DNA of 64,000 bases from Nematocida parisii ERTm1. Lineage: Eukaryota; Microsporidia. Position 1 is the stretch's first letter, and each line of letters opens with the position of its first letter. Of the stretch, positions 2,430-62,401 are shown in pieces. The position numbers and the translations under genes are program-made. The notes beneath the pieces were generated by a model. The model ran no database searches and was not told the DNA's origin. It saw only the letters and a list, made by a program, of their open reading frames with translations. The stretch is from positions 269,398 to 333,397 of the forward strand of contig NW_013524647.1 of NCBI RefSeq assembly GCF_000250985.1, written 5' to 3'.

Positions 2430-3029
2430 ATGTGGATAGAGGTATACTTCCAGGATAAATTTGCAATAGAGAAGAAGATAGAAGAGGCACCCCCTGGAAA
2501 CTACTTTCAAAAACCAGGCAGGGAGAGTGAATATAAAGACATAAACAGCAGGAAGTTGCATAAAGCAGAAGATATTCAGAAGAAATGTGTAGATGATAGT
2601 GAAGAGGATTCGGAGTCTGTGGATATGGGGTATAGAACAGTAAGAGAATATATAGTAGATAAAGAGGTTGGCAGATATCGTCTTATTGATAAGAATTTAT
2701 CTGGGCCGGAGAGGGTTCTGTGCGGTAGCTGGTCTTTTAATAGAATAATTCGGTGGATTGAAGTCGGCGTGCCTGCCTTTTTTGAGACTCTTTCTTTTGG
2801 GCTGAGCATAGGTTCGTATATAAAAGCTTATGAAAGTACAGAGACTATCATTCTTGTAGGAAGCACTGGGATTTGTGTATTTTCTGTAGGCCACCGAACC
2901 ATAGTAGAATATAGTGTAATACGTGAAATAAAAGTGCACAAGAATATGGAGATAATATATATGGATAATGAATGGGTAGATAGTAATTTGTGCACTAGTA
3001 AGGCTCTTCGCAGGAAGAGTATGATGTGA
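2430..3029 (+). CDS. GRAM-like N-terminal part of a TBC Rab-GAP (frame 1 of 2)
   Basis: A 199-codon ORF starting at ATG 2430, 23 bp after TAF11. Its C-terminal half (GSTGICVFSVGHRTIVEYSV) resembles a GRAM/PH-like domain. The ORF ends at TGA 3027-3029, while the frame that is -1 to it is open from 3002 and encodes a second GRAM-like segment plus a TBC domain. Rab-GAPs of the TBC1D8/9 type carry two GRAM domains before TBC, so I infer one gene interrupted by a frame change rather than two genes. No A/T run lies in the 28-nt overlap. As a stand-alone protein it would have no clear function. Confidence 0.6.
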   Translation: MWIEVYFQDKFAIEKKIEEAPPGNYFQKPGRESEYKDINSRKLHKAEDIQKKCVDDSEEDSESVDMGYRTVREYIVDKEVGRYRLIDKNLSGPERVLCGSWSFNRIIRWIEVGVPAFFETLSFGLSIGSYIKAYESTETIILVGSTGICVFSVGHRTIVEYSVIREIKVHKNMEIIYMDNEWVDSNLCTSKALRRKSMM

Positions 3030-4543
3030 GCGCGGGCGCTCCATGCTCTGCAGAAAGTGCTACAAAGGAAACGAATTGTACTAAGCCAGAGAGTATTGAA
3101 AAGCATAAGCCACGCACTGCTTCTGATGAACAGCAGCTAGATTTTCATGTGGATAAGAGCGGAGAATCCAGTGGTGGAAACTATAAAAAGATAACTTGCT
3201 CTGTTTTTAACGATTTAGAGGAAGAGATTAGATCACTTGCACTTTCATCTGCAGAGGAAATCAGTTCTGTCTCAGAGTTGGTTTATATGCGAATCTGTGA
3301 ACGACTCTGTGTAACAATCCCTCTTTACAACCAGCACATACTCCATATTGCATCGCATTCTACAGGAACTATTACTATAACAAATGACTTTATCATTATA
3401 AAAGAGAATAGCCGGTATCTAGCCTTTCCTCTCTGCATGATCAGAAAAGTAGAAATAATCAAAGGGTGGAGCGTTCTTCTGCGCATTAGAGATGCAAATT
3501 ATAGAGAGTTTAAACTGTATCTAGAAAGAAATGACGATCTTTCCATAGAAGGCATACTTTTAAATATTGCCAGAGAAGACCCAAAGTTCAAAACAACCTA
3601 TTTTGAAGTTCTACTAGATCTATTGAAAAACAGCAAGTGCATGAATTATAACTTAAACAATGGGCATGGAGACTGGTCTATGGGAAGATCGTCAGAGTAC
3701 AGAATATACCTATGCATGAAAACAGCGGAGGGCGTGAGCCTACAGGTAAATAAGAATGACAGGCCATTTATTTGGCTTGGATGCTTCTGTATATGCGGCA
3801 TGGTGAGCGCACCAGATCTCTACCACGCATCAGTTGAAAAATCTAAAAAAACCTACTTTACTTCATATGAACAGATAGAGAAAGACATCCGTCGCTCTAT
3901 TTATGAGAGTGTACCTGATACAGTGTATGCTGGGCTAAAAAAGGTTATGCAAGCATTTACTGCTTATAATAATAATGAATACTTACAGGCGCATTCTATG
4001 ATTGGAGGAGTTCTTTATAGGATACTTGGCGAGTCTGGGTGCTTCTATGCACTCGTCCATATATTTACCAGAATACTTCCTGATTATATAGGTGCTGAAA
4101 TATATGGAATGCACAGAGACCTGTTTGTGTTCATTGAGTTTACAAAAGAGAAGTACCCAGGCCTGCACCATAACTTAATAGAAAAAGAAATTGAACTGGA
4201 AATACTTGTCACCCCATGGATACTTAGCTTATTCAGCACGATTTTTCAGAAAAAACACATTGAAGTAATATTTGACTACATCGCGTATTATGGGCCTAGC
4301 TTTGTTTTCAAACTCTCCCTAGCTCTTTTGGAGAGAATGTACTTAGGCATATCCAGATCAAAAAAGACAGGATCCATACTAAAAATATCTGCACAGTATT
4401 TCTTTAATAACACAAGCACTCCCTCTCTAAGTGACAGTGAATTCTCTCTTCTCATTAACTTAGCACAGACAGACAGTGTAGTTACTCCAGAGCGCGTTCA
4501 CTATAAAAGACAACAGTATGAACTTGCGCACAGAAAAGTATAA
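3002..4543 (+). CDS. TBC-domain Rab GTPase-activating protein (frame 2 of 2)
   Basis: The frame is open from 3002. The first in-frame ATG lies only about 88 codons after position 3026 (VYMRICERL), which favours read-through from the preceding ORF. It contains a GRAM-like segment (ITNDFIIIKENSRYLAFPL), then a TBC domain with IEKDIRRSI (IxxDxxR arginine finger) and EYLQAHSMI (YxQ glutamine finger), followed by the helical C-terminal half (PWILSLFSTIF...VIFDYI). Both catalytic fingers appear intact, so Rab-GAP activity is likely. It probably works on vesicle traffic Rabs. Product family: high confidence. Exact start and joining: uncertain. Confidence 0.75.
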   Translation, partial: GSSQEEYDVSAGAPCSAESATKETNCTKPESIEKHKPRTASDEQQLDFHVDKSGESSGGNYKKITCSVFNDLEEEIRSLALSSAEEISSVSELVYMRICERLCVTIPLYNQHILHIASHSTGTITITNDFIIIKENSRYLAFPLCMIRKVEIIKGWSVLLRIRDANYREFKLYLERNDDLSIEGILLNIAREDPKFKTTYFEVLLDLLKNSKCMNYNLNNGHGDWSMGRSSEYRIYLCMKTAEGVSLQVNKNDRPFIWLGCFCICGMVSAPDLYHASVEKSKKTYFTSYEQIEKDIRRSIYESVPDTVYAGLKKVMQAFTAYNNNEYLQAHSMIGGVLYRILGESGCFYALVHIFTRILPDYIGAEIYGMHRDLFVFIEFTKEKYPGLHHNLIEKEIELEILVTPWILSLFSTIFQKKHIEVIFDYIAYYGPSFVFKLSLALLERMYLGISRSKKTGSILKISAQYFFNNTSTPSLSDSEFSLLINLAQTDSVVTPERVHYKRQQYELAHRKV

Positions 4544-8663: not shown

Positions 8664-8728
8664 GAAATGCATAAATATTTTGATGCAACCAGAAATATTA
8701 ATAAACTGTGTCTATATTGCAAATTTTT

Positions 8729-10423
8729 ATGGTGGAAACAGTTGCAAGGAAAGAATCCTTTGCTTTGAAAGATCTCTGTAAAGGGCACTTAAAAGCCCAT
8801 ATTATAGAAACAGACTCACTGGATAAGAAACTGCATGGAGGGCATTTATACTATCTTGCACACGCAGAAAGGTGTTTGAATGAAAGTATAGAGTGCACAT
8901 CGAATATAGAGGATGTTGATGATATGAAATGCAGCTGTATAGATTATTTGGTGTTTTTAAAGGGCGCGCTGACTAATGACAAGCTGGTTTGGAATAAGCT
9001 AGTCAAAGTAATAAAAAAAGTGCGCGAACTTAAAACAACGCATGAGTTAAGAGTAGGGTATGAAACAATACTACTTTTGGCCAAGCAGATGAGAAAAGTT
9101 ACAGAATCATCAGGCTTAATTAAGAGGGGCACGGAAAATACCACGAAAATTGAAACACCAGGATGCATTCTTAAGGACAATGAAGATCTGTTAGTGGAGA
9201 CATTAAACAGCATCATGAGCAATTCACATTTTGTTATTAGGAATATTATTAAGAATATTGTAAAGGAATTAGTGGGAGGTTGTTTAGAAAGCTCTTTGCT
9301 TAATAATGTAAATTGGTCTGTTCATAATAGAACAAGTATTACTTTGTCCATGAAATCAGTGAGACTGTCAGCAAGCGAGGGAGATATTTTCTTGCTAAAT
9401 GATAAAAAGTCTGGGGATAAAATAACAAAGCTTCTTCTATTAGCAGATCACATGCAGTATGCGAAAATGCTTCGAGAAGTTGATTTTACAAGCGTAGGTG
9501 CCAGAAACATTCGCATACTATCAAGCAAACTATCAAATGCTATTCGCAGAGAGATTTTTGCAATTTTAGTAGAGCACGGCTCGTTAAACTGTGTATTTTT
9601 TACTGATGCGTGTAGTGTTATTCCAGAGGATATGCATGAAAAATGCATTGGCACAAAAAATGAAAATGTAAGAGTTGAATACTTTGAAAGTCTTCTAAAG
9701 GACCAGGCTACTATTGAAAGCAGGCTAGGCAAAATAGTGCGGTGGCTGCAGTATAACCAAATACTTATGGCAAATGAGAACCAGAAAAGAGTCAGGCTGT
9801 TATTCTATACTGTAGTAAAGGCGATGCGATACAAGGTTGTAACTAAGTACAAATATTTAGTAGAGAACCAGCTGGAAGACAACAAAAACCAAAAAAGCAT
9901 GGTTCTTTTTAAAGAAATAATTGAAATTGTACTGGGGATGGCTGAAAGCACTAATTACTGCCGTGTGCTTCAGGGACTGCATTATTTGAAAGTTCTGATT
10001 GAAACAAAAGATGTGCAGGATCACGTACCAGAGAAAAGATTCAAGGAAATAATACTCAATGCACTGACAGAGACACACAAAGAAGTGCGGGAGATATCTG
10101 CATCGTTCAAAATGGATATAACAGCAAAGCAGATAGACTCTGCGGTAAAGTCAACTCAAAATAGCGAGTTGCATGGAATGGCTCTTCTTCTGGCAGATAA
10201 TATAACAGAAAAAAACAGAGACGTAATTCAGCAGATTATGAAAAATGCGCTTGAAAGGATTCAGAATGCACAGGATTTATCTAATGTGCATAAAGACATA
10301 CATGTGCTTTGGAGTGTATTCAATGCACTTCCGGCTGATCGGATATTCTTGGAGGGAAATCGAATAAATCCAGCACACATAGTGGAAACAAAAAAAGAAA
10401 GTCATTTGGTATGCCGGGTCTAA
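8729..10423 (+). CDS. THADA/Trm732-like protein, N-terminal part (frame 1 of 2)
   Basis: A helical, repeat-like protein of about 564 codons starting at ATG 8729 (MVETVARKES). The earlier GTG at 8708 is rejected. It ends at TAA 10421-10423, whereas the -1 frame, open from 10339, continues with the conserved DUF2428/THADA region. In this overlap an A7 run (10390-10396) lies in the reading phase A-AAA-AAA. I infer one long gene of Armadillo/HEAT-type repeats split by a -1 change. The yeast homologue Trm732 partners Trm7 in 2'-O-methylation of tRNA position 32. Confidence 0.6.
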   Translation: MVETVARKESFALKDLCKGHLKAHIIETDSLDKKLHGGHLYYLAHAERCLNESIECTSNIEDVDDMKCSCIDYLVFLKGALTNDKLVWNKLVKVIKKVRELKTTHELRVGYETILLLAKQMRKVTESSGLIKRGTENTTKIETPGCILKDNEDLLVETLNSIMSNSHFVIRNIIKNIVKELVGGCLESSLLNNVNWSVHNRTSITLSMKSVRLSASEGDIFLLNDKKSGDKITKLLLLADHMQYAKMLREVDFTSVGARNIRILSSKLSNAIRREIFAILVEHGSLNCVFFTDACSVIPEDMHEKCIGTKNENVRVEYFESLLKDQATIESRLGKIVRWLQYNQILMANENQKRVRLLFYTVVKAMRYKVVTKYKYLVENQLEDNKNQKSMVLFKEIIEIVLGMAESTNYCRVLQGLHYLKVLIETKDVQDHVPEKRFKEIILNALTETHKEVREISASFKMDITAKQIDSAVKSTQNSELHGMALLLADNITEKNRDVIQQIMKNALERIQNAQDLSNVHKDIHVLWSVFNALPADRIFLEGNRINPAHIVETKKESHLVCRV

Positions 10424-11967
10424 ACATTCTAGAAACATATAAAATAGATCTTGCATACGATATAAGCGATATATACAATGAGTTTATTCTTCCTCTATTT
10501 AGAAAATCCTTGAAGATTCTGCAGACCCGTGAGATATATCTCTCAGAGCACACCGAGGTGTTACATACAAGCAAGGAAAGGGATGAAGAAACTACTAGCT
10601 ATTTACTGAGCTGGTACACCATTAGAGAGTGCATTATGTTTATTGCAGTGCATGCTATAACAACTAATGATGTGCAGTGTTTGGACATTTTAACTGATGC
10701 ACTACTGACTGTTGGAGGGCATTTGGGAGTTATTATGATAGCATCTGATGTGATAAAGTCAATTCTTTTGTTCTGTGATGCCCCAGAAACAACTTTGAAC
10801 TATGCGAAAGATTTAATGAATCTAATCACAACCAAAGACCTAAAAAACATTAGAAGGGATGGAGGAATTCCATATGCCTTTAAGGCACTTAGTGCATCAG
10901 AAGGGAATTCAAAGAGCAAAATAGCCACACACTATGTTATGAAAGAGGCACTGCAGAGATCGTTTATGCTAATTGAAAATAGATTTGTATTTAAGCCGGT
11001 GCGTGACAATTTTGAACTCACATTTTCTTCTGATTGTGGTATATCCCAGCTGCAGATGGAAAAAGATGTGTCTAGTGTGGAGCCAAAAATAGAAAATGAA
11101 AAGTATCTAATACACTATCTCAACGTGCTTAAAAGTATATCAAGTGATGGGATATTCAAATACGACATGAGAGTGTATGAGCCATCCCTATTTCTGCTTT
11201 CTGCTATGCTTATTTCCCACAGCAACTGGAAAGTAAGAAACACATCGCTAATGCTATACACCACGCTAATTAAAAAAATGTGCAAAGAAACATTAAACAC
11301 CCTAGAAGATGCAAGGTATTCAAAAATATCTGTTAACAGCACCTCCAAGAAGGTACTGTGTGACTGCTTAGAATACTTTACTGCACAAAATGATAAAAAT
11401 GGAATTTTTTCATGCATAGTCTTCTTCCTGCGCATAAATCTAATTGACGAGAGAGAAAGAGGCCTGCTGTCCAAAATAAGAGCTACTTCTTCCTGTAAAA
11501 GAACATGCAAAAAGATAGACCAAATTCTACATAAAACAACAGAGCCAGCAAATGATATTATAATCAGTGCTCATACTGTGATACCCAGGGATGTAGAAAA
11601 CATTTTAGCAATGCTTGTCTCTAATGAAGATGAAAATGCTGTCGGAGTATATAACACAGGGAAAAAATGTGCTGGCATAGACAGTGGGTGTATGAAACTA
11701 GAAAGTGAAATACTCAATATCTTAGGTAGTGAAGATGAGTACATTAGAGACTACGTAGTAAATAAGTACATGCCAAACAGTTCATACGAATATGCACTTC
11801 ATGCACTTGTGTACAGAGCAAGGTGTAAAGTATGCCTAAAAGCGCGTATAGATAGTTCCATGGCCCAAATGCAGTGCATATTAGGAAGTGAGCAATTTCC
11901 ATCTGAAAGATTAAATATGTTCAGAGACTTTTCATATGAGCTATCTCTATTGCAGCGTGCATTGTGA
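10411..11967 (+). CDS. TRM732: THADA/Trm732-like protein, DUF2428 part (frame 2 of 2)
   Basis: A 518-codon ORF overlapping the preceding one by 13 bp in the -1 frame. It contains the THADA/Trm732 DUF2428 signature: SWYTIRECIMFIA, then IRRDGGIPYAFKALSASE, matching the conserved RRSAGLPfl segment, followed by HEAT-like helices (NWKVRNTSLMLYTTLI, the NWKVRNA-type motif of this family). An ATG exists at 10411, so independent initiation is possible, but in other eukaryotes this domain is always the middle of one long protein. Expected role: cofactor for the tRNA ribose methyltransferase Trm7. Confidence 0.7.
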   Translation: MPGLNILETYKIDLAYDISDIYNEFILPLFRKSLKILQTREIYLSEHTEVLHTSKERDEETTSYLLSWYTIRECIMFIAVHAITTNDVQCLDILTDALLTVGGHLGVIMIASDVIKSILLFCDAPETTLNYAKDLMNLITTKDLKNIRRDGGIPYAFKALSASEGNSKSKIATHYVMKEALQRSFMLIENRFVFKPVRDNFELTFSSDCGISQLQMEKDVSSVEPKIENEKYLIHYLNVLKSISSDGIFKYDMRVYEPSLFLLSAMLISHSNWKVRNTSLMLYTTLIKKMCKETLNTLEDARYSKISVNSTSKKVLCDCLEYFTAQNDKNGIFSCIVFFLRINLIDERERGLLSKIRATSSCKRTCKKIDQILHKTTEPANDIIISAHTVIPRDVENILAMLVSNEDENAVGVYNTGKKCAGIDSGCMKLESEILNILGSEDEYIRDYVVNKYMPNSSYEYALHALVYRARCKVCLKARIDSSMAQMQCILGSEQFPSERLNMFRDFSYELSLLQRAL

Positions 11968-21601: not shown

Positions 21602-24350
21602 ATGGAAGAATTAAAGGCAGCACTTTCTGTTGAAACAGATGAGAGAAAGAGAGCAAAGCTAGAGAAAAAGATGAGCAAACTAGCAAAGTTCATGAGCAAA
21701 AATGGAGATTCAGAAGAATATGCCAAAGAAGGAAAATCAAAAAGAAAAAAAGAAACTGGAATTTGAAGAGGGAGAGTTTATACCGGAAGGAGAAAAAAAG
21801 ACTGTTACAAAGCTTAATGGCCAGTTCAACCCAAAGACCGTGGAGAATGGATGGTTTTCATGGTGGAACAAAGAAGGATTTTTCACTCCAGAATACAAAA
21901 CCAAGGCATGTAATGGAAAGATGTTTAGTATAGTGTTACCTCCTCCAAATGTGACAGGATCTCTTCACTTAGGGCACGCTATGATGGCCTCAATTGAAGA
22001 TACACTTGTTAGGTGGAAGAGAATGCAGGGGTACAAGACTCTCTACCTTCCTGGAACTGATCACGCAGGAATAGCAACACAGGTGGTTGTAGAGAAGTCG
22101 CTTGAGAAGCAGGGGATGTACAGGAAAGACATGACTAGAGAGGCATTTTTAGAAAAAGTATGGGAGTGGAAGAACCAGTATGGCAGCCGTATCTCAGAGC
22201 AGTTTAAGTCGCTGGGCACTAGTCTGGACTTTACTAGAGAGAAGTTTACAATGGATGCAGATGTTTCTCTAGCAGTAACAGAAGCCTTTGTTAGATTCTA
22301 TGAAGAGGGTTTGATTTATCGAGGAAATAGGCTGTCCAACTGGTGTGCAAAAATACAAACCAGCTTAAGTGACCTAGAGGTGGACTACAAGATGGTTGAA
22401 CCATATGGAAAAATATTCACTGACGGGAAGGAGTATGTTGCTGGGAGAATATTTACAATTAAGTACAGTGTGGAGGTTGATGGAAAGATGGAAACAATCC
22501 ATGTACAAACAACAAGGCCTGAGACTATTTTTGGCGATGTAGCACTGTGTGCTAATCCAAATGACAGCCGGTATGCCAAATTTAAGGGCAGCTCGCCTAT
22601 CAATCCACTTACACAGAAGAAGATGCAGTTTGTATTTGATGAGGCAGCTGATATGTCTTTTGGAACCGGTGTGCTAAAAATAACACCTGCCCATGATCAC
22701 GTTGACTTCGAGGTAGGAGAAAAACACAATCTTGAGATGATATCTATTTTAGACATTAACAACAGAATGACAGTTGGGCCGTTTAAAGGACTTCTTAGAT
22801 TTGATGCAAGGGAAGAGACTGTAAAACTTCTCAGAGAATTGGGAGTTTTGGTGAAAGAAGAGGGCCACTCTTCAAACCTTCCAATTTGCTCAAGAACAGG
22901 GGAGGTGATAGAGCCTAGGCTTACACCACAGTGGTGGATGAACTGCCAGAAGCTTGCAAAGAAGGCGCTTGAAGCCTCGCAGTCTGGAGAGTTGAAGATT
23001 GTTCCAGAGGAGATGAACAAGACATGGGAGGGATGGCTCCTGAACATTAAAGACTGGTGCCTTTCCCGTCAGCTGTGGTGGGGGCACAGAATACCCGCGT
23101 ATGCTAAGGATGGAAAGTGGTACATTGCAAGAAGTAAAGAGGAGGCAGAGAAGCAGGCAGGCGGGCCGGTTGAGCAGGAAGAAGATGTTCTCGACACATG
23201 GTTCTCCTCTGGGCTGTGGCCGTTCTCTACCCTTGGATGGCCAAATGAAACCGAAGACCTGAAGACCTTCTACCCAACATCTCTTTTAGAAACAGGAAAA
23301 GATATTATTTTCTTCTGGGTGGCCAGAATGGTGATGATGGGAATTGCCCTAACAGGAAAATGTCCATTCAAGATGGTTCTATTCCACAGCATAGTAAGAG
23401 ATGCAAAGGGAGAGAAAATGAGTAAGAGTAAAGGGAATGTCATTGACCCAGTTGATGTTATATCCGGCACCACTCTAGAAAACCTTCTGTCCAAGCTGAA
23501 GACAGGGAATCTGTCCCAGAATGAGGTGGAAAAGGCAACGGACAGTATAACACAGGAGTATCCAGCAGGAATTGAAGCATGTGGAAGTGATGCTCTGCGA
23601 TATGCGCTTCTTTCCAGTGCTTCTCTAGGGCGGGATGTAAACCTAAGCATTGATAAAGTTCTAAGCTGCAGGCGATTCTGTAACAAGATATGGAATGGAA
23701 TGAAGTTCGCACTTTCACAGAAGCCAGGAGAAGGCAATGAAAAGGTTAAAAAGGGATCATTTGAGGATATCACAGACCGCTGGATTGAAAGCAGATTTAA
23801 CAAGGCCATTGCTAGTGTAAATGGCTCTTTAGAGTCCTCTAACTTCATGAAAGCCGCAGTAGATGTGCACCAGTTTATGGTCTATGAGTTCTGTGACTTC
23901 TACTTAGAGCTGTTTAAGGGCAGAAAGGATATATCTGGTATTAACACTCTGCGAACAGTCTCTCTTAACTTTATTAAGCTTATACACCCACTCTTCCCCT
24001 TTTTAACAGAAGAGATATATCAAGCAATGAAGAGCACCTGGGAGATAGAAGGATACACATGGATGGACTCCATTACTGTTGAAGACTACCCAGCAGCAAG
24101 CGCTGATATAGATGAGGGCAGTGAAGATTTACAACGGATTGAGTCTATCATAGAGTTCATTAAGGATGCTCGGTCTAAAATAGCCACACAAACCACTATA
24201 ATCAAGGTTGTGATAAAGCTATCTAAAATAACTGAAGACTTAGCCATGCACCAAGAAACAATGAAAAAGCTAATTGGAGTTGAGATTGAATGCACCAGCA
24301 CTGGCGTGTTTAATGAGTCTGCTGCTGGCATAGAGTACTCTTTAGTCTAA
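21602..24350 (+). CDS. VAS1: Valyl-tRNA synthetase, N-terminus in another frame
   Basis: The main frame (ATG 21702 to 24350) encodes a class I synthetase: PPPNVTGSLHLGHAMM (HIGH box HLGH), the CP1 editing domain with TTRPETIFGDVAL, GEKMSKSKGNV (KMSKS box) and an anticodon-binding domain. Upstream, an ATG at 21602 opens a 54-codon ORF with ERKRAKLEKKMSKLAKF, the Lys-rich extension typical of eukaryotic ValRS (K.aKlaKF). This runs into a stop at 21764-21766 in a different frame. A change of +1 (or -2) within 21696-21766 joins them, and an A7 run at 21745-21751 is the best candidate. Starting at 21702 would also give a near-complete enzyme. Confidence 0.93.
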
Positions 24351-39502: not shown

Positions 39503-39988
39503 ATGCGGATTATAGTTAAGAATTTACCAGTAACTGCAACAAAGCAGGATATAAAAGAGCATTTTTCTGAAAAGGGGGTTCCGACGGACGTGCGCCTTCT
39601 AAGCACGATGCGTGGTGAAAGCCGAGGAATTGCATTTATAGGATATAAGACCGAAGAGGAATCTGAGGCCAGTATAGTGCACTATAACCGGGCATACTAT
39701 AATGGAAACAAGTTGGTTGTGCAGAAAAGCGAGAGCAAGGAGGCTCGTAATAGGACTATGCAAGAAGACCGCCCAGTGAAGCAACAAAAAGCGGTAATTG
39801 ATGGGCTTGAGGTGGGAGAGATGAAAGAAATACTAAAGCTTCTTCAGGCCAAAAAAGAGAATGTGTGGTCTATGACGGTAGATGATGAAAGTCCAGAAAA
39901 GGAAAAAAAGAAAAGAAGGAGAAGTCACTCAAGGATATTGTTGAGAAGTATCGAAAAACAGCAGAGACAAAAAACAAAGAGAAAGTAA
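39503..39988 (+). CDS. MRD1: Mrd1/RBM19 rRNA-processing protein, RRM1 part (frame 1 of 2)
   Basis: Starts at ATG 39503. Residues 1-75 form an RRM (RIIVKNLPVTATKQDI and RGIAFIGYKTEEESEASI are RNP2 and RNP1), followed by a helical, basic linker. This frame ends at 39988 after an Arg/Lys-rich stretch. From the A7 run at 39903-39909 onward the -1 frame gives EKKEKKEKSLKDIVEKYRKT, a more natural continuation that enters RRM2. In the zero frame the run is phased A-AAA-AAG, the classic -1 slippery heptamer. Mrd1 is a single multi-RRM protein needed for early 18S rRNA cleavage in the 90S pre-ribosome. Confidence 0.8.
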   Translation: MRIIVKNLPVTATKQDIKEHFSEKGVPTDVRLLSTMRGESRGIAFIGYKTEEESEASIVHYNRAYYNGNKLVVQKSESKEARNRTMQEDRPVKQQKAVIDGLEVGEMKEILKLLQAKKENVWSMTVDDESPEKEKKKRRRSHSRILLRSIEKQQRQKTKRK

Positions 39989-41082
39989 TGGAGAGTGGAG
40001 AGGTATTTGTCAATGGTATACCATACACTGCAACAGAAGAGGAGGTTGAGCAGGAATTCAGTAAATACGGAATGGTGGCAGAGGTGTTTATGAAGTACAA
40101 AGAAAGAACAGATTCATGGGGTGAGGGCCAGACGCTAAACACTGGCTTTGCGATAGTTACATATACATTTCCTAAGGATGCGTGTGAAATATTAGGAGAG
40201 ACAATTCTATTCCAGGGAAAGCATATTAAAATACTACCAAGCAGAGGAAAGCCTGTAGAGGAGGCAACTGATAAAAACAAGAGCAATCTATCACATGGAA
40301 GATACAACCCAGTGTTCTTTAACTTTACTGCAGTTCTTGGTGTTGCATCAAAAGAAAAGAAAGTTTCTAAGCGAGACATTCTTAAAGACAGAGGTATTGG
40401 TGTGGGTGGTAAAATAGCGCTATTAGAAAGCGAACTTATTGAAAGAACCCGCATGTTTTTAAAGGACGAGGGAATCTCTGAAGAGTGCACTTGCAGTAAA
40501 AAACCGTGCATCTGCATGTTTATATCCAAGAAGTCCATATTGGTTAAGAATGTACCATACGGAATAAGAGAGGGAGAAATTAGAGAACACTTTACCAAAT
40601 ACATAAGAGCAGTATTCTCTCCATCCAAGACTCTTATTATTCTAGAATATGGAAATAAGTCTGATGCTATGGCAGAGCTTAAACAAAACAACTTTACCAG
40701 AATAAGAGACCAGCCAATATATATAGAATATCTAAAGGTAACAAAAGAAAGGTATGCTAGAGAAATGGCAGGCCTTCCGCCTATCACAGGACTAAAATCT
40801 GCAGAGAATGAGCTTAAGAAAGAGAAAGAAGACCCTCTTATGCTTAAGCTTATACTAAAGAATGTACCATTCCAGGCAGGCCGGGGAGAGCTATCAGAGC
40901 TACTGACAGGTCTTATAGGAACAGATTATACACTTCGAATGCCTTTAAAGGCAGATGGGACACACCGAGGATTCTGTTTTGTTGAGATGCAGTCAAGTGA
41001 TGCAGCAAACACTCTTCTTAGAAAGTTAAAGCATGTCCATCTCTATGGAAGACACATTGTAGCTGAGAAAGCACAGCTGTAG
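39988..41082 (+). CDS. MRD1: Mrd1/RBM19 rRNA-processing protein, RRM2-4 part (frame 2 of 2)
   Basis: A 364-codon ORF. Its ATG overlaps the previous stop (TAATG), but its frame is open upstream to the A7 run. It carries three RRMs: GEVFVNGIPYTATEEEVEQEF with FAIVTYTF, KSILVKNVPYGIREGEIREHF with a degenerate RNP1 (LIILEYGN), and LKLILKNVPFQAGRGELSELL with RGFCFVEM. Between RRM2 and 3 the NPVFFNFTAVLGVASKEKKVSKRDIL segment is a Mrd1-specific linker (nslF.r.da.....a...g.sk.dil). Gene identity is firm. Whether the two ORFs are one protein needs RNA or peptide evidence. Confidence 0.88.
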   Translation: MESGEVFVNGIPYTATEEEVEQEFSKYGMVAEVFMKYKERTDSWGEGQTLNTGFAIVTYTFPKDACEILGETILFQGKHIKILPSRGKPVEEATDKNKSNLSHGRYNPVFFNFTAVLGVASKEKKVSKRDILKDRGIGVGGKIALLESELIERTRMFLKDEGISEECTCSKKPCICMFISKKSILVKNVPYGIREGEIREHFTKYIRAVFSPSKTLIILEYGNKSDAMAELKQNNFTRIRDQPIYIEYLKVTKERYAREMAGLPPITGLKSAENELKKEKEDPLMLKLILKNVPFQAGRGELSELLTGLIGTDYTLRMPLKADGTHRGFCFVEMQSSDAANTLLRKLKHVHLYGRHIVAEKAQL

Positions 41083-43722: not shown

Positions 43723-44113
43723 ATGACACATAATACTGGGCTCTCTTCACGTACTAAAATTGCTTTTCTAGCAGATGAAGCCACAATTAATGGATTTAAA
43801 CTTACGGGAATAAATGGATCTGAGTGGACCTGCCAGTCTGTGCATGGGGTGTTCAACTATTTTTATGTTGTATCTGACACAACTGACCCAGCTGAGGTAA
43901 TATCTAAGTACAACATATTCATAGAAAGAAAAGAAATAGCAATGATATTTCTGGGAAGAAAGGCAGCGGACGCACTAAAGGACGAGATACCCAAAAAAAA
44001 AGGAAATGTTCCCGCTGGTAATGGAGATTCCATCAAAAAATACGGCGCCGAGTATTGCAGAAATCAAATTGATGAAGAGGCTGAGTGACTTATCTGGAGT
44101 AAATACAAAATAA
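43723..44113 (+). CDS. VMA7: V-type ATPase subunit F, interrupted by a frame change at A9
   Basis: The start frame gives TKIAFLADEATINGFKLTGIN, NYFYVVSDTTDPAEVISKYN and IERKEIAMIFLGRKAADALKDEIPK, matching Vma7 (iaviGDedTv.GFlLaGi, ..f...er.DiaillI.q..Ae.ir). After an A9 run at 43993-44001 this frame loses similarity and stops at 44088. The +1 (or -2) frame gives FPLVMEIPSKNTAPSIAEIKL and ends at 44113, matching the family's PavLEIPSKd.pY. So the complete subunit needs a shift at the A run. Vma7 lies in the central stalk of the proton pump of acidic vesicles. Confidence 0.85.
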
Positions 44114-44233: not shown

Positions 44234-44747
44234 CTAGTCTATACCAGATCGGTCTATTTCTATGCCAAGTATGCTGTTTACACCATTTTTATCTAAATAA
44301 TCGATTAAATCTTCGTTGTTGTCGTTTTCTTCGTTGTTTTGCAGGACATTCTTCAGAAGTGGATCATTTTCCGTGCATATTTCAGAAAGAGCTATAATCT
44401 CATTCACCGGAAGATTCAGCTGACTGCCCAGCTCTCTTATAATTGACTCCAGTACTAAAATTCTGCTAGTGAGTGTACTCTGCGGCTCTTTTACAAGACT
44501 GAGTGCTTTTTTTGTCTGGACCTTTTCCTCTTTTTTCAGCGCTTGCTGCCTTTCTTTCGTATATAGACAAGTGCTTCTTAGTACTTCGCAGCAACTCTTT
44601 TAACCTCTCAACCTCTTCCTGAAGAGTCCCTACTTTTTTATAAAGAACCCCAATTCTGTCCCGCTCCTTTCGGCTGTTTTCCTTCAGCTCTGCAATCACA
44701 TCTTCTTTTTCGTGCAGCTCTTTTAGTAGCCGGTCACTCCGCTCCAT
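44234..44747 (-). CDS. Coiled-coil protein with a frame change at an A run
   Basis: From ATG 44747 the frame encodes a heptad-type coiled coil (LKELHEKEDVIAELKENSRK, VGTLQEEVERLKELLRS) and stops at 44466. The +1 frame is open over the end of this ORF and continues as ALKKEEKVQTKKALSLVKEP, then ILVLESIIRELGSQLNLPVNEIIALSEIC, and an acidic C-terminus, stopping at 44234-44236. Two A runs (T6 at 44531-44536 and T7 at 44507-44513 on the plus strand) lie in the overlap. The combined protein would have about 170 residues. No family was recognised; a kinetochore, cytoskeletal or vesicle-tether component is possible. Confidence 0.6.
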
Positions 44748-46135: not shown

Positions 46136-46159
46136 GGAGATAAAAATAAAGATAAGAAT

Positions 46160-51129: not shown

Positions 51130-51159
51130 GGCTAAAAAATATTTAAAACATAAAAATAA

Positions 51160-52450: not shown

Positions 52451-52490
52451 AACTATTTTATCCTTTAAAACACTAGTATTGTCATCTTTT

Positions 52491-54145
52491 ATGCGCGCAC
52501 CCTGGAATATTCTTGTATTGGCACTGAGGGCACGGGCCTTTCGAGTGTTCAGTGATAACATTACAATTAGATTAAATAACCACGGCATAGACAGAATTGA
52601 GTCTATTTCCTCTGAGGGCCGTAAAACTATTTCTGCAGCGATTCCTGTGAATAAGGAATCAGTTGAAGTGGATAGTAGCCAGTACAAATATGGAGACAAA
52701 GACAGAGTATCTAGCATGCAGAGCAGTACTTATCTGGACAATACTACCAAAGCTGCCCAGAATAAGAGGAAATGCTTAAAAAACTGCGGGAGTTGGAAGA
52801 GAGCCGAAAAAACAAGAGAACGGTGGAAGAAACAGAGAAGAGGAACAGTAAACTGCCGAATGATTCTAGAAACTGCGTTGTTTTAGAAATAATCCATCAT
52901 TTAAGCGCAGACCAAGAGAAACAGCTTAAAGAAAGCATAGAAAAGAGAAATGGATACTTACAATACGTATATAAAAATACTATTGAAGGATTCTCTGTCT
53001 GTAATTTATCGGAAGAGGCAATTGATGAAACATTATCAGAAATTAATACAGTAAAGCTGAACTTGGAGAGAAACACACAGTACTCTCTAGCGTATAAACA
53101 AACAGACTTACCTGATAATTTTTATACTGTAATCAACAGCCAGCAGCGCCTATTTAATGTGAAATGGCTGGATTCCTTCATTAATCGATATATCCGAAAT
53201 GGGTATCTTATAAAAAAATCCAGTTTATTTCGCTGGTACAGAAATAAGTATTTTCCTCTACAGAGTAACTATACTGGAAAAGGCATGCAGATAGAGATAC
53301 TTGATGCTGACATTGGGGTGGTTCATAAAGAAGTGTCAGGCCGGGTGAAAATAGTTCGAAAATATGCACAGCACCCGCCGAGCAGCCATCCTACATCTAT
53401 AATGACAGCTGCTGCTGGCATAACAACAGGGCTAGCAAAAGAAGCTAGAATTGTTTTACACCCCGTGTTTAAATTCGGTGTTGCCGACCTTTCTGATATT
53501 CTTTATGTGTTAGATGGAATATCCGTTAAAGAAAACAAGAAAATCATTTTACTCCCATTTACTGGCGAGAAGTCGGCTATATTAGACAAGTCATTGAAAA
53601 TGTTCTATGATGCAAATATCCCTGTAGTTGTTGCTGCAGGGAACAGTGCTGAGTCAGCATGTAACTATAGCCCATCTAGGTCTAAATATACAATCACTGT
53701 GGGAAGTATGTCTGACACACTCTACCCAGAAGTATGGTCCAACACAGGAGAATGTGTTGACACATATGCCCCAGGGTCTGCAACAGTTGGGGAAGTGTCA
53801 GAAATGTCTCCTGCTGTTAAGTATAGAATTCGGGAAGGAACAAGTCTATCTGCCGCTTACATGGCAGGATATCTTGCGGTTTTAATGCAAAGCACGAGAG
53901 TTTCTGTCTCTGAGATGAGAGAATACTTAACAAACAAGCTGTCCATCCATCTTCCTATGCTGCTAACAGCCGGAGAAAGTACTCCATTTGTTACTAGTGA
54001 TTTTGTGTATTACAGCGTGTTCATTGACGTCTGTATTGTTCTGTGTCCTATTTTGTTGCTTTTCTGGTTAATTAGTATTTACTGGAAGTCCAATAAAAAA
54101 GACCCATTTGTAAAACACAAATCCCGAAAGAAATCTTCTGTGTAA
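52491..54145 (+). CDS. Subtilisin-like serine protease, signal peptide in another frame
   Basis: The ORF 52772-54145 carries an inhibitor-like propeptide, then the S8 domain: EILDADIG (Asp), PSSHPTSIMTAAAG (His in place of SHGTH), VVVAAGNSAESA (oxyanion Asn) and REGTSLSAAYMAG (Ser). A C-terminal membrane segment (CIVLCPILLLFWLISIYW) ends in a basic tail. It lacks a signal peptide, but an upstream ORF from ATG 52491 (MRAPWNILVLALRARA) supplies a hydrophobic start and overlaps it in frame zero. A -1 change at the A6 run 52778-52783, phased A-AAA-AAC, joins them. Microsporidian subtilisins are secretory-pathway proteases linked to spore wall or polar tube maturation. Confidence 0.85.
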
Positions 54146-56383: not shown

Positions 56384-58918
56384 ATGTACTTTATTAGACA
56401 CATACTTGTGCTATTCTATATAATATGTATAAAAGCAAGAATGGTATGGGAAGATGTAAAAGAATTTAAATCAACTTGTATAGGTTTATATAGGGGCAAC
56501 GAAAGAATGGTATCTTCACTTGTGTCATTACACCCGGCAATCTTATATGTTAATAATAGGCTTGGATTAATACATAACCTAAGCATGTTTTCTTATGAAA
56601 TAGATAGAAAATTGAAATTGGAAATTAAATGTAATGCATTTGGCGGTAATAGTTATAAATGCCGTAAAACATCTGATAAGAATGGGGTTCATCGTTTAAA
56701 ACATAGCAATCGATACTTATCGATTATGCATTTAAATTTACATAGGTGTTTAATTGACATGTTTCCTATAGTAGATGGAAGAGCAATAATTTATTCAAAA
56801 GAAAAAAATTCATTTTTTAGTTTTATTGATGAGATCCCATCGAACAATAACAAGTTTGGCTTGCTTGCTTCTTTATTTCTACTTTCTGAAGGGATAGATA
56901 TTTCTTTGGAAATAAAAAGGAATGACCTTAAAGAGGATATGCTTGTTCTTAAAACATCTAAAAATAGCACTAAGAATTACTTTACCGATGAATTGAGACT
57001 AGAGAGCAAATGTTACCCAGATTTAGATGAAAAAAAACTATCTGTATCTGATAAAAATTTTAGACGTCGTATACGTAATAAGTATTACCAGAAACAAACT
57101 AAAGATATAGTTAATTTTTATAAAGAAGTTAAAGATAGAATATTAAAAAATTTGTCTAATTGCAGTAAAGATAAAATCAATCAGCATGAAGATGATTATA
57201 TAAACAAGGCCCAATTACTTATACAAATGTATATATTCGAGTATATATCCACTAAAAAAGACATGAAAGCGTATCTTATAGAAACATTTAATATACTAAA
57301 AGAACACGTTGATGCAGTAGAAAAAGAAGAGTCTAATGATATAGGAGAATTTGCTATAAATGTTTTTAACAGTCTTTTCTGCCCTATAAATAAGAAAGCG
57401 CTAGATGAAGAAGCGAAAACTATGAAAAATATAACTGAAATCCATAAGAATCTGAGTAACTGTGTGTTTGTTCCCTTTCATAGAGAACCATCTATGCCAG
57501 ATATTTTACACACTTGCGAAAAAATCAATGAATTATTATTAATTGGCATGGCTTCTAACTCTAACTGTATAACTAATGCTCTCACCAACAGCTTCTATTC
57601 CAGTGAAGACACCCCTTTTCAATTAAAATCGCTTACTATTGGGACCGAAATTGGCATACTTACTCTGCTCTGCTGTTGTTTCTATGACAGCCAAGGAATG
57701 GAGTACACTCTTAAAACAATTAAATATCCTCCTAACGAATTAAAATTGTTTTTCACTAAGTACAGAGACCTATTTGACACAGAAGATTTAAGTGTTCATT
57801 ACGACTGGCATAGGATAATTAATTATATGAAAGTCGGGGATGAATTTTGCGAACGCAGTAAAACCCAGTATTATAATGGGGGTTTGCTAAGTATGCTTTC
57901 TATTATTTTAGATATAACTAATGGGCCTAATAACATAATGGTAGAATTAGATGAGCTTATTGACAAAGTAAGAAAACGAAAGATATCTGACCCATGTATA
58001 ACGATGAGTATTTGTGATTTAGTTGAAAAAATACTGAATGGACTTTCATATAATAAACAAATGAAAGTAACATCAGATTCTTGCCTTAAAATAGATAAAG
58101 CTAAAGACTGTGAATTTGATGCATTTGGAAAACTGTCTTTAATAATCTCTGGCGATTCTAAAATTGTAAGAATACTGACTATGGAGTTTAGCCTTGATAA
58201 AGTAACTTCTACGTATGATGATGTATATGAGTGTATGAATAAAACTGAGAATGATTCTTCTCTAAAATCTAGTATAAAGAAAATAGTTGATATAGGTATT
58301 TCTTACGACCAAAAAAACATCACTAGAATTGGCAAAACAATTGTAAAATACGCTAACTACATAACAGGTGCAATTTATAATATAGTGGATAAAAATACAA
58401 AACCGTGCTATGTTCAATATTTAAATTCAGCCCAAAAGCGGAATATTATGCCAGATCAATGCGAAGCATTTTCATATGGAAGAATTATATATACACCTGA
58501 CAAAATGCATTTAATAAAGTCTATCTCGGCAATTAAATATATTGAGGAGCCACTGAAACATTTGTTTTATCGAAATATTATTATTAGTGTTATAGGAAGT
58601 ATGCTAAATTTCAAAGAAAGCGCAATAGATAAATTCATTTGTGCTATTGCTGCTGATTTGGGAATTGACTCCTTTAATGACAATATAATAATGAATGAAG
58701 ATATTTATTCGAAATTAATAGCTGGTACTATATTTGTGATGCCAGAATTAGATTTAGATGAAGATTCAGATAATTCAGATGAAGATTCATATAAAGAAGC
58801 GGATGAAGATTCAGATAATTCGGGTTATTCAGATAAAGATTTAGATAATTCAGATAATTCAGATGAAGATTCATATAAAGAAGCGGATGATGATTCAGAT
58901 AACTCAGATGAAGATTAA
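56384..58918 (+). CDS. Large secreted protein of a lineage-specific family, copy 1
   Basis: An 844-residue protein with an N-terminal signal peptide (HILVLFYIICIKA), so probably exported. Landmarks shared with copy 2 are MVW-DVKEFK after the signal, CLIDM-P-VDGRA-IYS, SLEIK, FVPFHRE-SMPDIL-TC, LTIGTE--ILTLLCCCFY, FFTKYRDLFDTEDLSVHYDW, and YGRIIYTPDK. The C-terminus is a low-complexity Asp/Ser/Glu tail (NSDEDSYKEADEDSDNS). There are no enzyme motifs. The layout agrees with the large host-exposed gene families of Nematocida, which is an inference from general knowledge and not a match. Confidence 0.8.
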   Translation: MYFIRHILVLFYIICIKARMVWEDVKEFKSTCIGLYRGNERMVSSLVSLHPAILYVNNRLGLIHNLSMFSYEIDRKLKLEIKCNAFGGNSYKCRKTSDKNGVHRLKHSNRYLSIMHLNLHRCLIDMFPIVDGRAIIYSKEKNSFFSFIDEIPSNNNKFGLLASLFLLSEGIDISLEIKRNDLKEDMLVLKTSKNSTKNYFTDELRLESKCYPDLDEKKLSVSDKNFRRRIRNKYYQKQTKDIVNFYKEVKDRILKNLSNCSKDKINQHEDDYINKAQLLIQMYIFEYISTKKDMKAYLIETFNILKEHVDAVEKEESNDIGEFAINVFNSLFCPINKKALDEEAKTMKNITEIHKNLSNCVFVPFHREPSMPDILHTCEKINELLLIGMASNSNCITNALTNSFYSSEDTPFQLKSLTIGTEIGILTLLCCCFYDSQGMEYTLKTIKYPPNELKLFFTKYRDLFDTEDLSVHYDWHRIINYMKVGDEFCERSKTQYYNGGLLSMLSIILDITNGPNNIMVELDELIDKVRKRKISDPCITMSICDLVEKILNGLSYNKQMKVTSDSCLKIDKAKDCEFDAFGKLSLIISGDSKIVRILTMEFSLDKVTSTYDDVYECMNKTENDSSLKSSIKKIVDIGISYDQKNITRIGKTIVKYANYITGAIYNIVDKNTKPCYVQYLNSAQKRNIMPDQCEAFSYGRIIYTPDKMHLIKSISAIKYIEEPLKHLFYRNIIISVIGSMLNFKESAIDKFICAIAADLGIDSFNDNIIMNEDIYSKLIAGTIFVMPELDLDEDSDNSDEDSYKEADEDSDNSGYSDKDLDNSDNSDEDSYKEADDDSDNSDED
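58760..58918 (+). repeat. Acidic minisatellite at the 3' end of copy 1
   Basis: Repeated GATTCAGATAATTCAGATGAA-type units (6, 9 and 18 bp periods) encode the Asp-Ser-Asp-Asn-Ser tail. One unit is altered to contain TTCGGGTTAT (58819-58828), encoding NSGYS instead of NSDNS. Confidence 0.8.
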
Positions 58919-59799
58919 TATGAATAAGGAGGCTGTGTTATATACTAAGTATATATACATTTCATATGTCTGTGTACTAAGCTATATAATATATCTAGAG
59001 TGACTTAAAAGAAAGAGTTAGTGATTTCCGGCCATGCTATACAGATATAATCAGAAAAACACTCAATAAGACTTTTTACTTTATACTAGCCAGTAGTGGT
59101 TGCATCCCATCCAATATGCCAACTATTATGGATAGCATAACAATAAAAGAAATAATTTTAGGATTTCTATATTTTAAGGAATTATTTTAATCCCAGCAGA
59201 ATGTAATTAATAAGAAGTATACCAAATTCAGACTTAGCTTCAGCTTTTTTTATTATTCTTGCCATATAAAATTTTAAACATTTACATATTATAGCACTAG
59301 ATGACTTCGCATAGATATGTGTGTGGTACCCACACTAGGCATGGTTCATCATATAATATAAGCCATTGGTTGATTCTTTAAAAGGAACATTAAGACACTT
59401 TAATGTTTATTGGATTTGAATATGCCTTTATATACCGCATGTTCAATTTAATTCATATTAACTTGTTTATGTAATCATTCAGATAACTCATATTACTATA
59501 TTTGTACTAGTCTTGCCATACAGCATAAACTAGTATTGTTTTGTCTCTATTTGCCTCTTAGAATCTTGGGCTGCTCATTTTACTCCTTTATTTTTATTAT
59601 TATACAATTGTGTATATTTTTTTCACCCTATTTTATCATCTATTAACTACTTATAACCCGAATATCTCAGAGATAGCCCCTGTAATATAAATATAATTTT
59701 ATATTTCTTAAATATGACATATGATTATATTTAACCCGAATAGCTGTTTAATTAAATCAAAAATTTAAAGTATAAATATAACTCAAAAATAAAAATTAT
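58919..59799. other. Spacer between the two tandem copies, 881 bp
   Basis: It holds the shared 3' flank of copy 1, a minus-strand C-terminal coding remnant near 59076-59180 and the 5' flank of copy 2. Two motif copies lie at 59653-59662 and 59731-59740. No intact gene. Confidence 0.55.
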
Positions 59800-60339
59800 A
59801 TGTACTTTAGATACTGTATAGTGCTATTATACATAACAAATATAAAAGCAAGAATGGTATGGAAAGATGTAAAAGAATTTAAAAAAATTGTTGTTGGTTC
59901 ATATAAAGATGTGGATAGAATGGTATCTCCACATAGCTCTAAGCATCCTACAAACTTATATATCAATGGTAAGCTTGGATTTATCTATAATCTAAGCGAG
60001 TTTGGTTGTGAAATAGATGTAAAATATAAAATGGAAGTTGCAACTAGTGAATCTGGCGGTAATATCTATAAATGCAAAAAAACATCTGATAAGAATGGCA
60101 TTCGTAGTTTAGACAATAACCAATCTCTCTCTTCAAATATATCTTTGAAATGTTGTAGGTGTTTAATTGACATGCTTCCTACAGTGGATGGAAGAGCAAC
60201 AATTTATTCAGAAGAAAAATATTCATTTTTAGCTTTTCTTAATAATATTTCAGAGAAAAAAGACAGACTGAGACTGCTTGCTTCATTTGTTTTTACTTTC
60301 TATGGGGGTAGATGTTTCTTTAGAAATAAAAACAAATGA
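59800..60339 (+). CDS. Large secreted protein, copy 2, N-terminal part (frame 1 of 2)
   Basis: 179 codons parallel to residues 1-165 of copy 1, with the same signal peptide layout (YCIVLLYITNIKA) and MVWKDVKEFK. Alignment with copy 1 shows one extra T near 60290-60294 (TTTGTTTTTAC against TTTATTTCTAC), after which this frame reads nonsense and stops. The gene is therefore frameshifted relative to its sister, and may be a recent pseudogene or read by slippage. Confidence 0.7.
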   Translation: MYFRYCIVLLYITNIKARMVWKDVKEFKKIVVGSYKDVDRMVSPHSSKHPTNLYINGKLGFIYNLSEFGCEIDVKYKMEVATSESGGNIYKCKKTSDKNGIRSLDNNQSLSSNISLKCCRCLIDMLPTVDGRATIYSEEKYSFLAFLNNISEKKDRLRLLASFVFTFYGGRCFFRNKNK

Positions 60340-62401
60340 AGCTAAACATGACGTGCTTGTTCTTAAAACATCTAGATATAGCACTGAGAATTACTTTAGT
60401 ACTGAATTAAAGCTAGGAAATAGAATTTACAAAAATAAAATGCATGAAAATGAACCATGCTTGCTAGATGATAAATATTATTACACGCAAACTGAAAATA
60501 TAGTTGATTTCTATAAAGAAGCTAAATATAAAGAATTAGAAAATAGATTCGATCCTACTACTGATTTCAATACTAAATATGCTGTGCGTATGGCTAAATT
60601 ACTTATACAAATATATATATTTGAGTATATATCCAGTAATGAAGATGTAAAAGCATACCATATAGAAACATTTAATATACTAAAAGAACATGTTGAAGCA
60701 ATAGAAAACCAAAAACATTTAAAGTTAAATTCTGCAGACAGGCTCGCTATAACTGTTTTTAAAGATATATTCTGTCCTATAAATGAAGAATTTTTAGATA
60801 TAGAAGCAGAAAAAATTGAAAATATAGAAAGTGCTAATAATTATGTGAGTAAATATGTGTTTATTCCCTTTCATAGAGAACTATCCATGCCAGATATTTT
60901 ACGTACTTGCTACAAAAATAATGAATTGTCCCTAACTGGCATGGCTTCTAGTTCTATGAATACATCCAACCCATCCATGCATTTCTCTCCTACTAACCTA
61001 GAATATCTTTCTGGTTTAGAAAAGCTTACTATTGGGACAGAAACTAGCATACTTACTCTACTTTGCTGCTGCTTCTATAACAGCACAGATATGGAGTACA
61101 CTCTTAAAAGAATTGAAAGTTCTCCCGTAGAATTAAAGCAGTTCTTTACTAAGTACAGAGACCTATTTGACACAGAAGATTTAAGTGTTCACTATGACTG
61201 GTATAAGTTAATTAATGATTTGACACATAAGAATTCATCAAATTCTAGCCTTAAACCCCAGTATTGTAATGGAGGCTTGCTAAGCATGCTTTCTATTATT
61301 TTAGACATAACTAATATGTTTGAAGTCATAAAGGAAGAACTAAATGAGCTTATTAAAAAAGTAAGAGAAGAAAAAAACTTAAGCTCAAAACTGACGGCGG
61401 ATACTAATAATTTAGTTAATAAAATATTGGCCTTGCTTTCATTCAATAAAGAAATGAAAGTATCGGCAGACACAGATCTTAGAATAGGCACACTTGAAAA
61501 CCATGAATCTGATATATTTGGGAAATTGCATATAAGCATCTCCACTACTCCTTCAATTGTGAGAAAATTAACTATCAATTTTAATTTTGATAAAACAACT
61601 GCTGAATATGTGGGCATGTCATATAACGGCGATTATGTGATAAACAAGTATATTGATTCTATGTGTAATATAGCAAATAAAATCGAATTTCATCCTACTG
61701 GCGCCGATTTAAATGAAATTTTTAGTTTCATTATGCACAAAGTGGATAAATTAAATAGTATGCTATATAGAAAGGAACCGCTATACTCTACTATATCTTT
61801 TAATTATGCTCTACTTAAGCTTAAACAATTCGATCTATATTATCTATTTTCATGCGGAAGAATTATATATACATCCGATAAAAAGCAGATAGTAAAATGT
61901 ATCTCGTCATTTGATTATAATAATAGTGATAAAAATAACTATTTCATTGGTAGAAATGTTATTATTAATATTGTAGGAAGTATGATAAATTTCAAAACAA
62001 GCGCAATAGATAAAGTATTTTGTGCTATTGCTTCTGATTGGGGGGTTGAGTGCTTTAATGATAATATAATAATGGATAAAAAAGTTTATTCAAAATTAAA
62101 ACCTGGTACTAGATTTGAGATGCCAAATTTAGATTATGATGTTGATTCAGATAAAGAAGCAGATAAAGATTCAGATAAAGAAGCAAATAAAGATTCAGAT
62201 AAAGATTCAGATAAAGAAGCAAATAAAGAAGCAGATAAAGATTCAGATAAAGAAGCAGATAATTTATATGATGATTCTGATGAAGAAGCAGATGAAGATT
62301 CAGATAATTTATATGATGATTCATATGATGATTCAGATAATTCATATGAAGATTCAGATAAAGAAACGGATGATGATTCTGATAATTCAGATGAAGATTA
62401 A
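60278..62401 (+). CDS. Large secreted protein, copy 2, main part (frame 2 of 2)
   Basis: The frame carries all conserved landmarks of copy 1 (FIPFHRELSMPDILRTC, LTIGTETSILTLLCCCFY, FFTKYRDLFDTEDLSVHYDW, IGRNVIINIVGSM) with roughly 50 percent identity by eye, then a longer acidic tail (DKEADKDSDKEANKDSDK). No further stop occurs in about 700 codons, so the reading frame has been under selection until recently, or still is. The apparent start at 60278 is TTG and not a real start. Divergence from copy 1 is large for a tandem pair, implying an old duplication. Confidence 0.7.
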   Translation: MLHLFLLSMGVDVSLEIKTNEAKHDVLVLKTSRYSTENYFSTELKLGNRIYKNKMHENEPCLLDDKYYYTQTENIVDFYKEAKYKELENRFDPTTDFNTKYAVRMAKLLIQIYIFEYISSNEDVKAYHIETFNILKEHVEAIENQKHLKLNSADRLAITVFKDIFCPINEEFLDIEAEKIENIESANNYVSKYVFIPFHRELSMPDILRTCYKNNELSLTGMASSSMNTSNPSMHFSPTNLEYLSGLEKLTIGTETSILTLLCCCFYNSTDMEYTLKRIESSPVELKQFFTKYRDLFDTEDLSVHYDWYKLINDLTHKNSSNSSLKPQYCNGGLLSMLSIILDITNMFEVIKEELNELIKKVREEKNLSSKLTADTNNLVNKILALLSFNKEMKVSADTDLRIGTLENHESDIFGKLHISISTTPSIVRKLTINFNFDKTTAEYVGMSYNGDYVINKYIDSMCNIANKIEFHPTGADLNEIFSFIMHKVDKLNSMLYRKEPLYSTISFNYALLKLKQFDLYYLFSCGRIIYTSDKKQIVKCISSFDYNNSDKNNYFIGRNVIINIVGSMINFKTSAIDKVFCAIASDWGVECFNDNIIMDKKVYSKLKPGTRFEMPNLDYDVDSDKEADKDSDKEANKDSDKDSDKEANKEADKDSDKEADNLYDDSDEEADEDSDNLYDDSYDDSDNSYEDSDKETDDDSDNSDED
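62140..62400 (+). repeat. Acidic minisatellite at the 3' end of copy 2
   Basis: GATTCAGATAAAGAAGCA-type 18-bp units and shorter derivatives, longer than in copy 1. Both other frames stay open through it, which creates false ORFs on both strands. Confidence 0.85.

What the first reader, a model, noticed from the sequence alone, without database searches (positions are those of the whole stretch)
2430..62401. Nine of about 46 genes need a frame change, mostly at A/T runs
Seen directly: GRAM/TBC, THADA-like, ValRS, acidic membrane protein, Mrd1, V-ATPase F, coiled-coil, subtilisin and secreted copy 2 each continue in another frame after an overlap. Six or seven coincide with a run of 5-9 A or T. 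ValRS, Vma7 and Mrd1 are expected to be essential, so true inactivation is unlikely. Three explanations remain: homopolymer errors in the assembly, transcriptional slippage at A runs (known in AT-rich bacterial endosymbionts), or ribosomal frameshifting. Many A6-A7 runs in other genes (for example 16926-16932) cause no shift, so run length alone is not sufficient.
Basis: partly seen in the sequence, partly recalled or inferred. Interest (0 to 1): 0.85.

Follow-up and report, generated by a model that had tools for sequence, protein, structure and literature searches.

The report
Frame breaks in one assembly only
Nine genes of a worm-infecting microsporidian look broken here most likely because this draft genome has single-base length errors; close relatives carry the same genes unbroken, so this is ordinary.

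Summary
The window belongs to the draft genome of the microsporidian Nematocida parisii ERTm1. The nine frame breaks are in the letters. They look like faults of this assembly and not a trait of the species. For each of the nine genes at least one relative has a single protein that matches both pieces, with 53 mismatches in 5,102 compared residues; three genes show none in 632, 424 and 122 residues. The nine Mrd1 and ten V-ATPase F relatives compared are all single proteins. Five breaks go one way, four the other. Five of nine touch an A/T run of 5 or more, against 0.89 expected (p=0.00135). A codon model sees breaks elsewhere too. This fits consensus errors better than recoding, conserved slippage or introns, which Nematocida reportedly lacks (PMC3749934, passage). 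About a fifth of genes affected resembles what is reported for 454 assemblies of low-GC genomes (PMC3277595, passages); the ERTm1 platform was not verified. Without reads, real indels private to ERTm1, perhaps heterozygous, remain possible.

The parts
2430..4540 (+). TBC-domain protein in two frames (pieces 2424-3026 and 3002-4540)
   Evidence: (RabGAP-TBC on the second piece); single protein P0121 (704 aa, N. parisii) matches both, 2 mismatches in 702
8729..11964 (+). THADA-like protein (DUF2428) in two frames (pieces 8705-10420 and 10339-11964)
   Evidence: single proteins P0124 (1079 aa, N. parisii; 4 mismatches in 1,075) and P0141 (N. ausubeli)
21602..24347 (+). Valyl-tRNA synthetase; the first 30-odd residues are in another frame than the rest
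   Evidence: single proteins P0001 and P0002 (915 aa each); 12 mismatches in 911 against P0001
35225..37127 (-). Acidic membrane protein in two frames (pieces 35787-37151 and 35225-36016)
   Evidence: single protein P0131 (634 aa, N. parisii), 0 mismatches in 632
39503..41079 (+). Mrd1 (multiple RNA-binding domain protein 1) in two frames (pieces 39503-39985 and 39889-41079)
   Evidence: nine single proteins match both pieces; 30 mismatches in 521 against P0125 (AWRm78)
43723..44110 (+). V-ATPase subunit F (Vma7); the last 30-odd residues are in another frame
   Evidence: (ATP-synt_F); ten single proteins match both pieces; 0 mismatches in 122 against P0146 (ERTm5)
44237..44747 (-). Small coiled-coil protein in two frames (pieces 44469-44750 and 44237-44599)
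   Evidence: single proteins P0147, P0154 and P0155; 2 mismatches in 167 against P0147 (AWRm78)
52491..54142 (+). Subtilisin-like protease in two frames (pieces 52443-52883 and 52766-54142)
   Evidence: (Peptidase_S8); one single protein, P0126 (551 aa, N. parisii), 3 mismatches in 548
59800..62398 (+). Secreted large-family protein, copy 2, in two frames (pieces 59782-60336 and 60272-62398)
   Evidence: P0122 (partial entry, 428 aa, N. parisii) matches both pieces, 0 mismatches in 424; family members P0138, P0139, P0142, P0144, P0145 span the break

Best explanation
The nine breaks are most likely single-base length errors in the consensus of this one draft assembly (N. parisii ERTm1), concentrated at homopolymer runs. 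In the living organism the genes are most likely continuous. Shown: breaks in the letters; a near-identical relative with a single protein for each gene; breaks in both directions; an excess at A/T runs; similar breaks elsewhere by a codon model. Inferred: that the fault lies in reads or consensus and not in ERTm1's DNA, and that the platform was prone to homopolymer errors.
For: Identity of the assembly: a protein named NEPG_02175 of N. parisii ERTm1 is listed with a contig of 389,905 bases, G000:C5 has that length, and the protein lies there at 100%. Single proteins matching both pieces for 9 of 9 genes. Indels rival substitutions: in the five genes whose best relative is labelled N. parisii there are 9 amino-acid mismatches in 3,381 compared residues against 5 frame breaks, hard to square with evolution under selection. 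Five breaks one way, four the other. Excess at A/T runs. Elsewhere: 11 frame changes with both segments of 300 nt or more in 190,856 non-N bases of 20 loci; without three loci set aside afterwards, 8 in 163,776, one of them at a stretch of N; the window has 5 by the same rule; p=0.37 for a difference. Literature: 454 assemblies of low-GC genomes may have 20% or more of genes with frameshift errors (PMC3277595, passages); here 9 of about 45.
Against: No reads could be examined. The platform of ERTm1 was not found: the primary paper is not held, and 454 is my recollection only. Two of nine breaks touch no run of 3 or more. The relatives are other strains and species, so a change private to ERTm1 is not excluded. 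The protein collection is clustered at 90% and shows one representative per cluster, so broken members of the same clusters would not be seen; short broken pieces were also outside the length limits of the searches. How the NEPAR strains were annotated was not confirmed.
Confidence: 0.88

Rival explanations
1. Real single-base indels private to ERTm1 or few strains, perhaps heterozygous in a diploid, so that the other allele still makes the protein.
For: ERTm1, ERTm2 and ERTm3 are described as likely diploid with heterozygous regions (PMC4172269, whole text). Longer runs mutate faster in real DNA too (general knowledge), so the excess at runs does not tell error from mutation.
Against: Indels would rival amino-acid substitutions in number, would hit about one gene in five, and would hit genes expected to be essential that show no second copy here.
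Confidence: 0.09
2. Transcriptional slippage or programmed ribosomal frameshifting makes full-length proteins from shifted genes.
For: Slippage at long poly(A) runs is known in AT-rich bacterial endosymbionts (PMC5009743, passages), and five of nine breaks touch A/T runs of 5 or more.
Against: Relatives need no shift in 9 of 9 genes. Directions are mixed. Two breaks touch no run of 3 or more. Only five breaks touch A/T runs of 5 or more, of which 305 lie in 45 long frames.
Confidence: 0.02
3. Pseudogenes: the genes are decaying.
For: Copy 2 belongs to a large family (24 matching stretches in this assembly), so loss of one copy would be tolerable.
Against: Few or no substitutions and one break per gene; housekeeping genes are included.
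Confidence: 0.01

Closest known systems
Homopolymer-associated frameshift errors in draft assemblies (Roche 454 type; PMC3277595)
   Same: Single-base breaks in coding frames, worse in A- and T-rich DNA, about 20% of genes in low-GC genomes, continuous orthologues in other assemblies
   Different: Platform of this assembly not verified; two of nine breaks touch no run of 3 or more
Transcriptional slippage at poly(A) runs in bacterial endosymbionts (PMC5009743)
   Same: Breaks at A runs in a small AT-rich genome of an intracellular organism
   Different: Not needed in relatives; both directions; runs often short or absent
Frequent ribosomal frameshifting in Euplotes (PMC5009743)
   Same: Many nuclear genes of one organism appear to need a shift
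   Different: Here directions are mixed and relatives need no shift; the rules of the Euplotes shift (+1, at stop codons) are recalled

Membership tests
Consensus (homopolymer) errors in an assembly | Other sequences of the same or sister species lack the break | tested here: met
   For 9 of 9 genes a single protein matches both pieces; five of the nine best relatives are labelled N. parisii; for copy 2 it is a partial entry; cluster members other than the representative were not visible
Consensus (homopolymer) errors in an assembly | Breaks enriched at homopolymers | tested here: met
   5 of 9 at A/T runs of 5 or more, 0.89 expected, p=0.00135, somewhat flattering
Consensus (homopolymer) errors in an assembly | Both insertions and deletions | tested here: met
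   Five one way, four the other
Consensus (homopolymer) errors in an assembly | Scattered over the assembly | tested here: inconclusive
   Codon model finds frame changes in other loci; not checked against relatives there
Consensus (homopolymer) errors in an assembly | Raw DNA reads disagree with the consensus | not testable with these tools
   No reads held
Programmed ribosomal frameshifting | Shift conserved in relatives | tested here: not met
   Relatives are single proteins across the break
Programmed ribosomal frameshifting | One direction | tested here: not met
   Directions mixed
Programmed ribosomal frameshifting | Common shift motif and stimulator | not tested
   No motif or structure search was made
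Transcriptional slippage at A/T runs | Every break at a long run | tested here: not met
   Two of nine touch no run of 3 or more, two more only runs of 3 and 4
Transcriptional slippage at A/T runs | RNA of mixed run length | not testable with these tools
   No RNA reads held
Spliceosomal introns | Organism has introns and a spliceosome | not tested
   Reported lost in Nematocida (PMC3749934, passage)
Pseudogenes | Further decay: several breaks, many substitutions | tested here: not met
   One break per gene; 53 mismatches in 5,102 residues, 42 of them in ValRS and Mrd1, whose relatives are ERTm5 and AWRm78

The most novel reading that the evidence does not exclude
Strain ERTm1 truly carries frame-breaking indels in about a fifth of its genes, mostly at A/T runs, and makes full-length proteins by slippage of its RNA polymerase or from a second, intact allele, a state that the strains and species around it do not share.
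Probability: 0.03. Interest if true: 0.85.

Novelty: not a real feature. Interest (0 to 1): 0.1.

Why it matters
ERTm1 is in regular laboratory use (PMC10393165, section 15), and its genome appears in comparative studies (PMC3879972 and PMC3749934, passages). If about one gene in five of this assembly is split by consensus errors, gene counts, presence/absence calls and lists of host-exposed proteins drawn from it carry false truncations. The cut product of copy 2 (699 aa, P0123) already stands in the protein collection that was searched (its source is hidden). It also warns against reading recoding into a single draft assembly.

Tried and rejected
Introns: set aside on the literature (PMC3749934 passage). 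A second intact gene copy in the assembly: none seen for V-ATPase F, Mrd1 or ValRS (only best candidates are scored, and the third ValRS hit is a 30% match on C8). Long-read origin: my first guess, dropped when the assembly proved to be ERTm1; no long-read N. parisii genome appears in the listed rows (one search listed 15 of 16,624). Platform of ERTm1: primary paper not held; one search listed 20 of 48 papers and none; passages of two of those papers give no platform. A published report of such errors in ERTm1: none among the rows listed (11 rows; none; 8 of 167); titles and abstract starts only, open-licence papers only. Three of the 20 sampled loci (L017, L022, L023, with 18 of the 30 frame changes) were set aside after I saw their counts, because they look like repeats, decayed stretches or contig ends; figures with and without them are given.

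Full report
What the window is. The window is bases 269398-333397 of contig C2 in an assembly of 3.98 Mb and 11 contigs; C2 has 702,481 bases. Its valyl-tRNA synthetase is 99% identical to that of Nematocida sp. ERTm5 and 85% to that of N. ausubeli. Contig C5 has 389,905 bases, the contig length listed for the protein NEPG_02175 of Nematocida parisii ERTm1, and that protein lies on C5 at 100% identity. The window therefore comes from the ERTm1 assembly, a microsporidian parasite of Caenorhabditis nematodes. Two of the 20 stretches sampled contain N, either gaps or withheld stretches.

The observation. All nine frame changes are in the letters. A codon-phase model that knows no homology finds eight of them in both runs and misses V-ATPase F. 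It also flags 46037/46038 in both runs and 52445/52446 alone; I take these for noise and for a step between two genes. By hand count's segments there are 45 coding units, one doubtful. Frame-aware alignment to a relative places each break within 4 to 19 bases. Five breaks touch an A or T run of 5 or more (9, 7, 7, 5, 5), one a run of 4, one a run of 3, two none of 3 or more. Random placement of intervals of the same lengths in the coding part of the window gives 0.89 at 5 or more (p=0.00135), 0.11 at 7 or more against 3 seen (p=0.0002), 2.11 at 4 or more against 6 seen (p=0.0072), and no excess at 3 or more (7 seen, 4.94 expected, p=0.14). The p values are somewhat flattering, because a run itself widens the interval in which a break can lie.

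What relatives show. I searched with pieces from one side of each break and then compared both pieces of each gene, kept apart, with the proteins found. For nine of nine genes at least one single protein matches both pieces. Outside the break intervals there are 53 mismatches in 5,102 compared residues: TBC 2 of 702, THADA-like 4 of 1,075, ValRS 12 of 911, acidic protein 0 of 632, Mrd1 30 of 521, V-ATPase F 0 of 122, coiled-coil 2 of 167, subtilisin 3 of 548, secreted copy 2 0 of 424. The best relatives of TBC, THADA-like, acidic protein, subtilisin and copy 2 are labelled N. parisii; the other four are ERTm5 or AWRm78. The relative of copy 2 is a partial entry of 428 residues; family members P0138, P0139, P0142, P0144 and P0145 span the break, P0135 and P0140 begin after it and say nothing. 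P0123 is the cut product encoded by this window. Nine Mrd1 and ten V-ATPase F proteins match both pieces, from several Nematocida species and unnamed metagenome sources.

Limits of that comparison. The collection is clustered at 90% and shows one representative per cluster, so a broken gene in another strain could hide inside a cluster. The searches also had length limits, so short pieces could be missed. The paper on nematode-infecting microsporidia (PMC10393165; section 15 and passages) called genes with Prodigal on assemblies of paired-end reads; that Prodigal joins no exons and no frames is recalled. It names an N. minor protein with the tag NEMIN, so P0143 (NEMIN01_0804) should be such a call. 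The tag NEPAR was not found in its main text, so I cannot say how those strains were annotated.

Mechanism. Recoding or slippage that the species relies on should be needed by its close relatives; for these genes it is not. Directions are mixed, five one way and four the other. 305 A/T runs of 5 or more lie in 45 long frames, while only five breaks touch such runs. Introns are reported lost in Nematocida (PMC3749934, passage). Pseudogenes would show more decay. What fits is single-base length error in the consensus, more likely at longer runs. In a comparison of platforms, 454 assemblies of low-GC genomes are said to have possibly 20% or more of genes with frameshift errors (PMC3277595, passages); here it is 9 of about 45 genes at about 35% GC. 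That ERTm1 was sequenced with 454 is my recollection and no call confirmed it.

Elsewhere in the assembly. In 20 other stretches (190,856 non-N bases) the model finds 30 frame changes, 11 of them with at least 300 nt of coding on both sides. Eighteen of the 30 lie in three loci that I set aside after seeing the counts (L017, L022, L023). In the other 17 loci (163,776 non-N bases) 8 pass the 300-nt rule, one of them at a stretch of N; the window has 5 by the same rule, no significant difference (p=0.37). The model was not checked against relatives outside the window, and in the window the 300-nt rule keeps only five of the nine, so these are rough figures.

Remaining doubt. Homopolymers also mutate faster in real DNA, so enrichment at runs alone does not separate error from mutation. 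The stronger argument is the count: in the five genes whose best relative is labelled N. parisii, 5 frame breaks stand against 9 amino-acid differences in 3,381 residues. ERTm1 and others are described as likely diploid with heterozygous regions (PMC4172269, whole text), so heterozygous indels remain the main rival. For ValRS the argument from essentiality is weak, because an ATG in the second frame follows the break at once and only the N-terminal extension would be lost. V-ATPase F would lose its last 30-odd residues, and Mrd1 would be cut before its later domains; no second copy of either was seen.

Verdict.

Noticed in passing
56384-58915 and 59782-62398: Two tandem members of a large secreted family with acidic tails; 24 matching stretches at 1e-20 or better lie in this assembly, a lower bound. 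NemLGF1 as the family name is my inference from the description in PMC10393165.
   Followed up: partly
G000:C7:162908-165236: Another member of the same family, near the end of its contig, also appears in two frames with several stops.
   Followed up: no
L023 (G000:C11:5001-15000) and L017 (G000:C5:100001-110000): The codon-phase model sees eight and seven frame changes there, perhaps decayed or repetitive sequence; not examined.
   Followed up: no
51160-51231: tRNA-Glu (CTC) on the minus strand inside the stop-free frame 50671-51243, just upstream of an acetyltransferase-like reading frame (the acetyltransferase label is recalled).
   Followed up: no
L010 and L014: Stretches with 920 and 362 N, gaps or withheld; one frame change coincides with the latter.
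   Followed up: no
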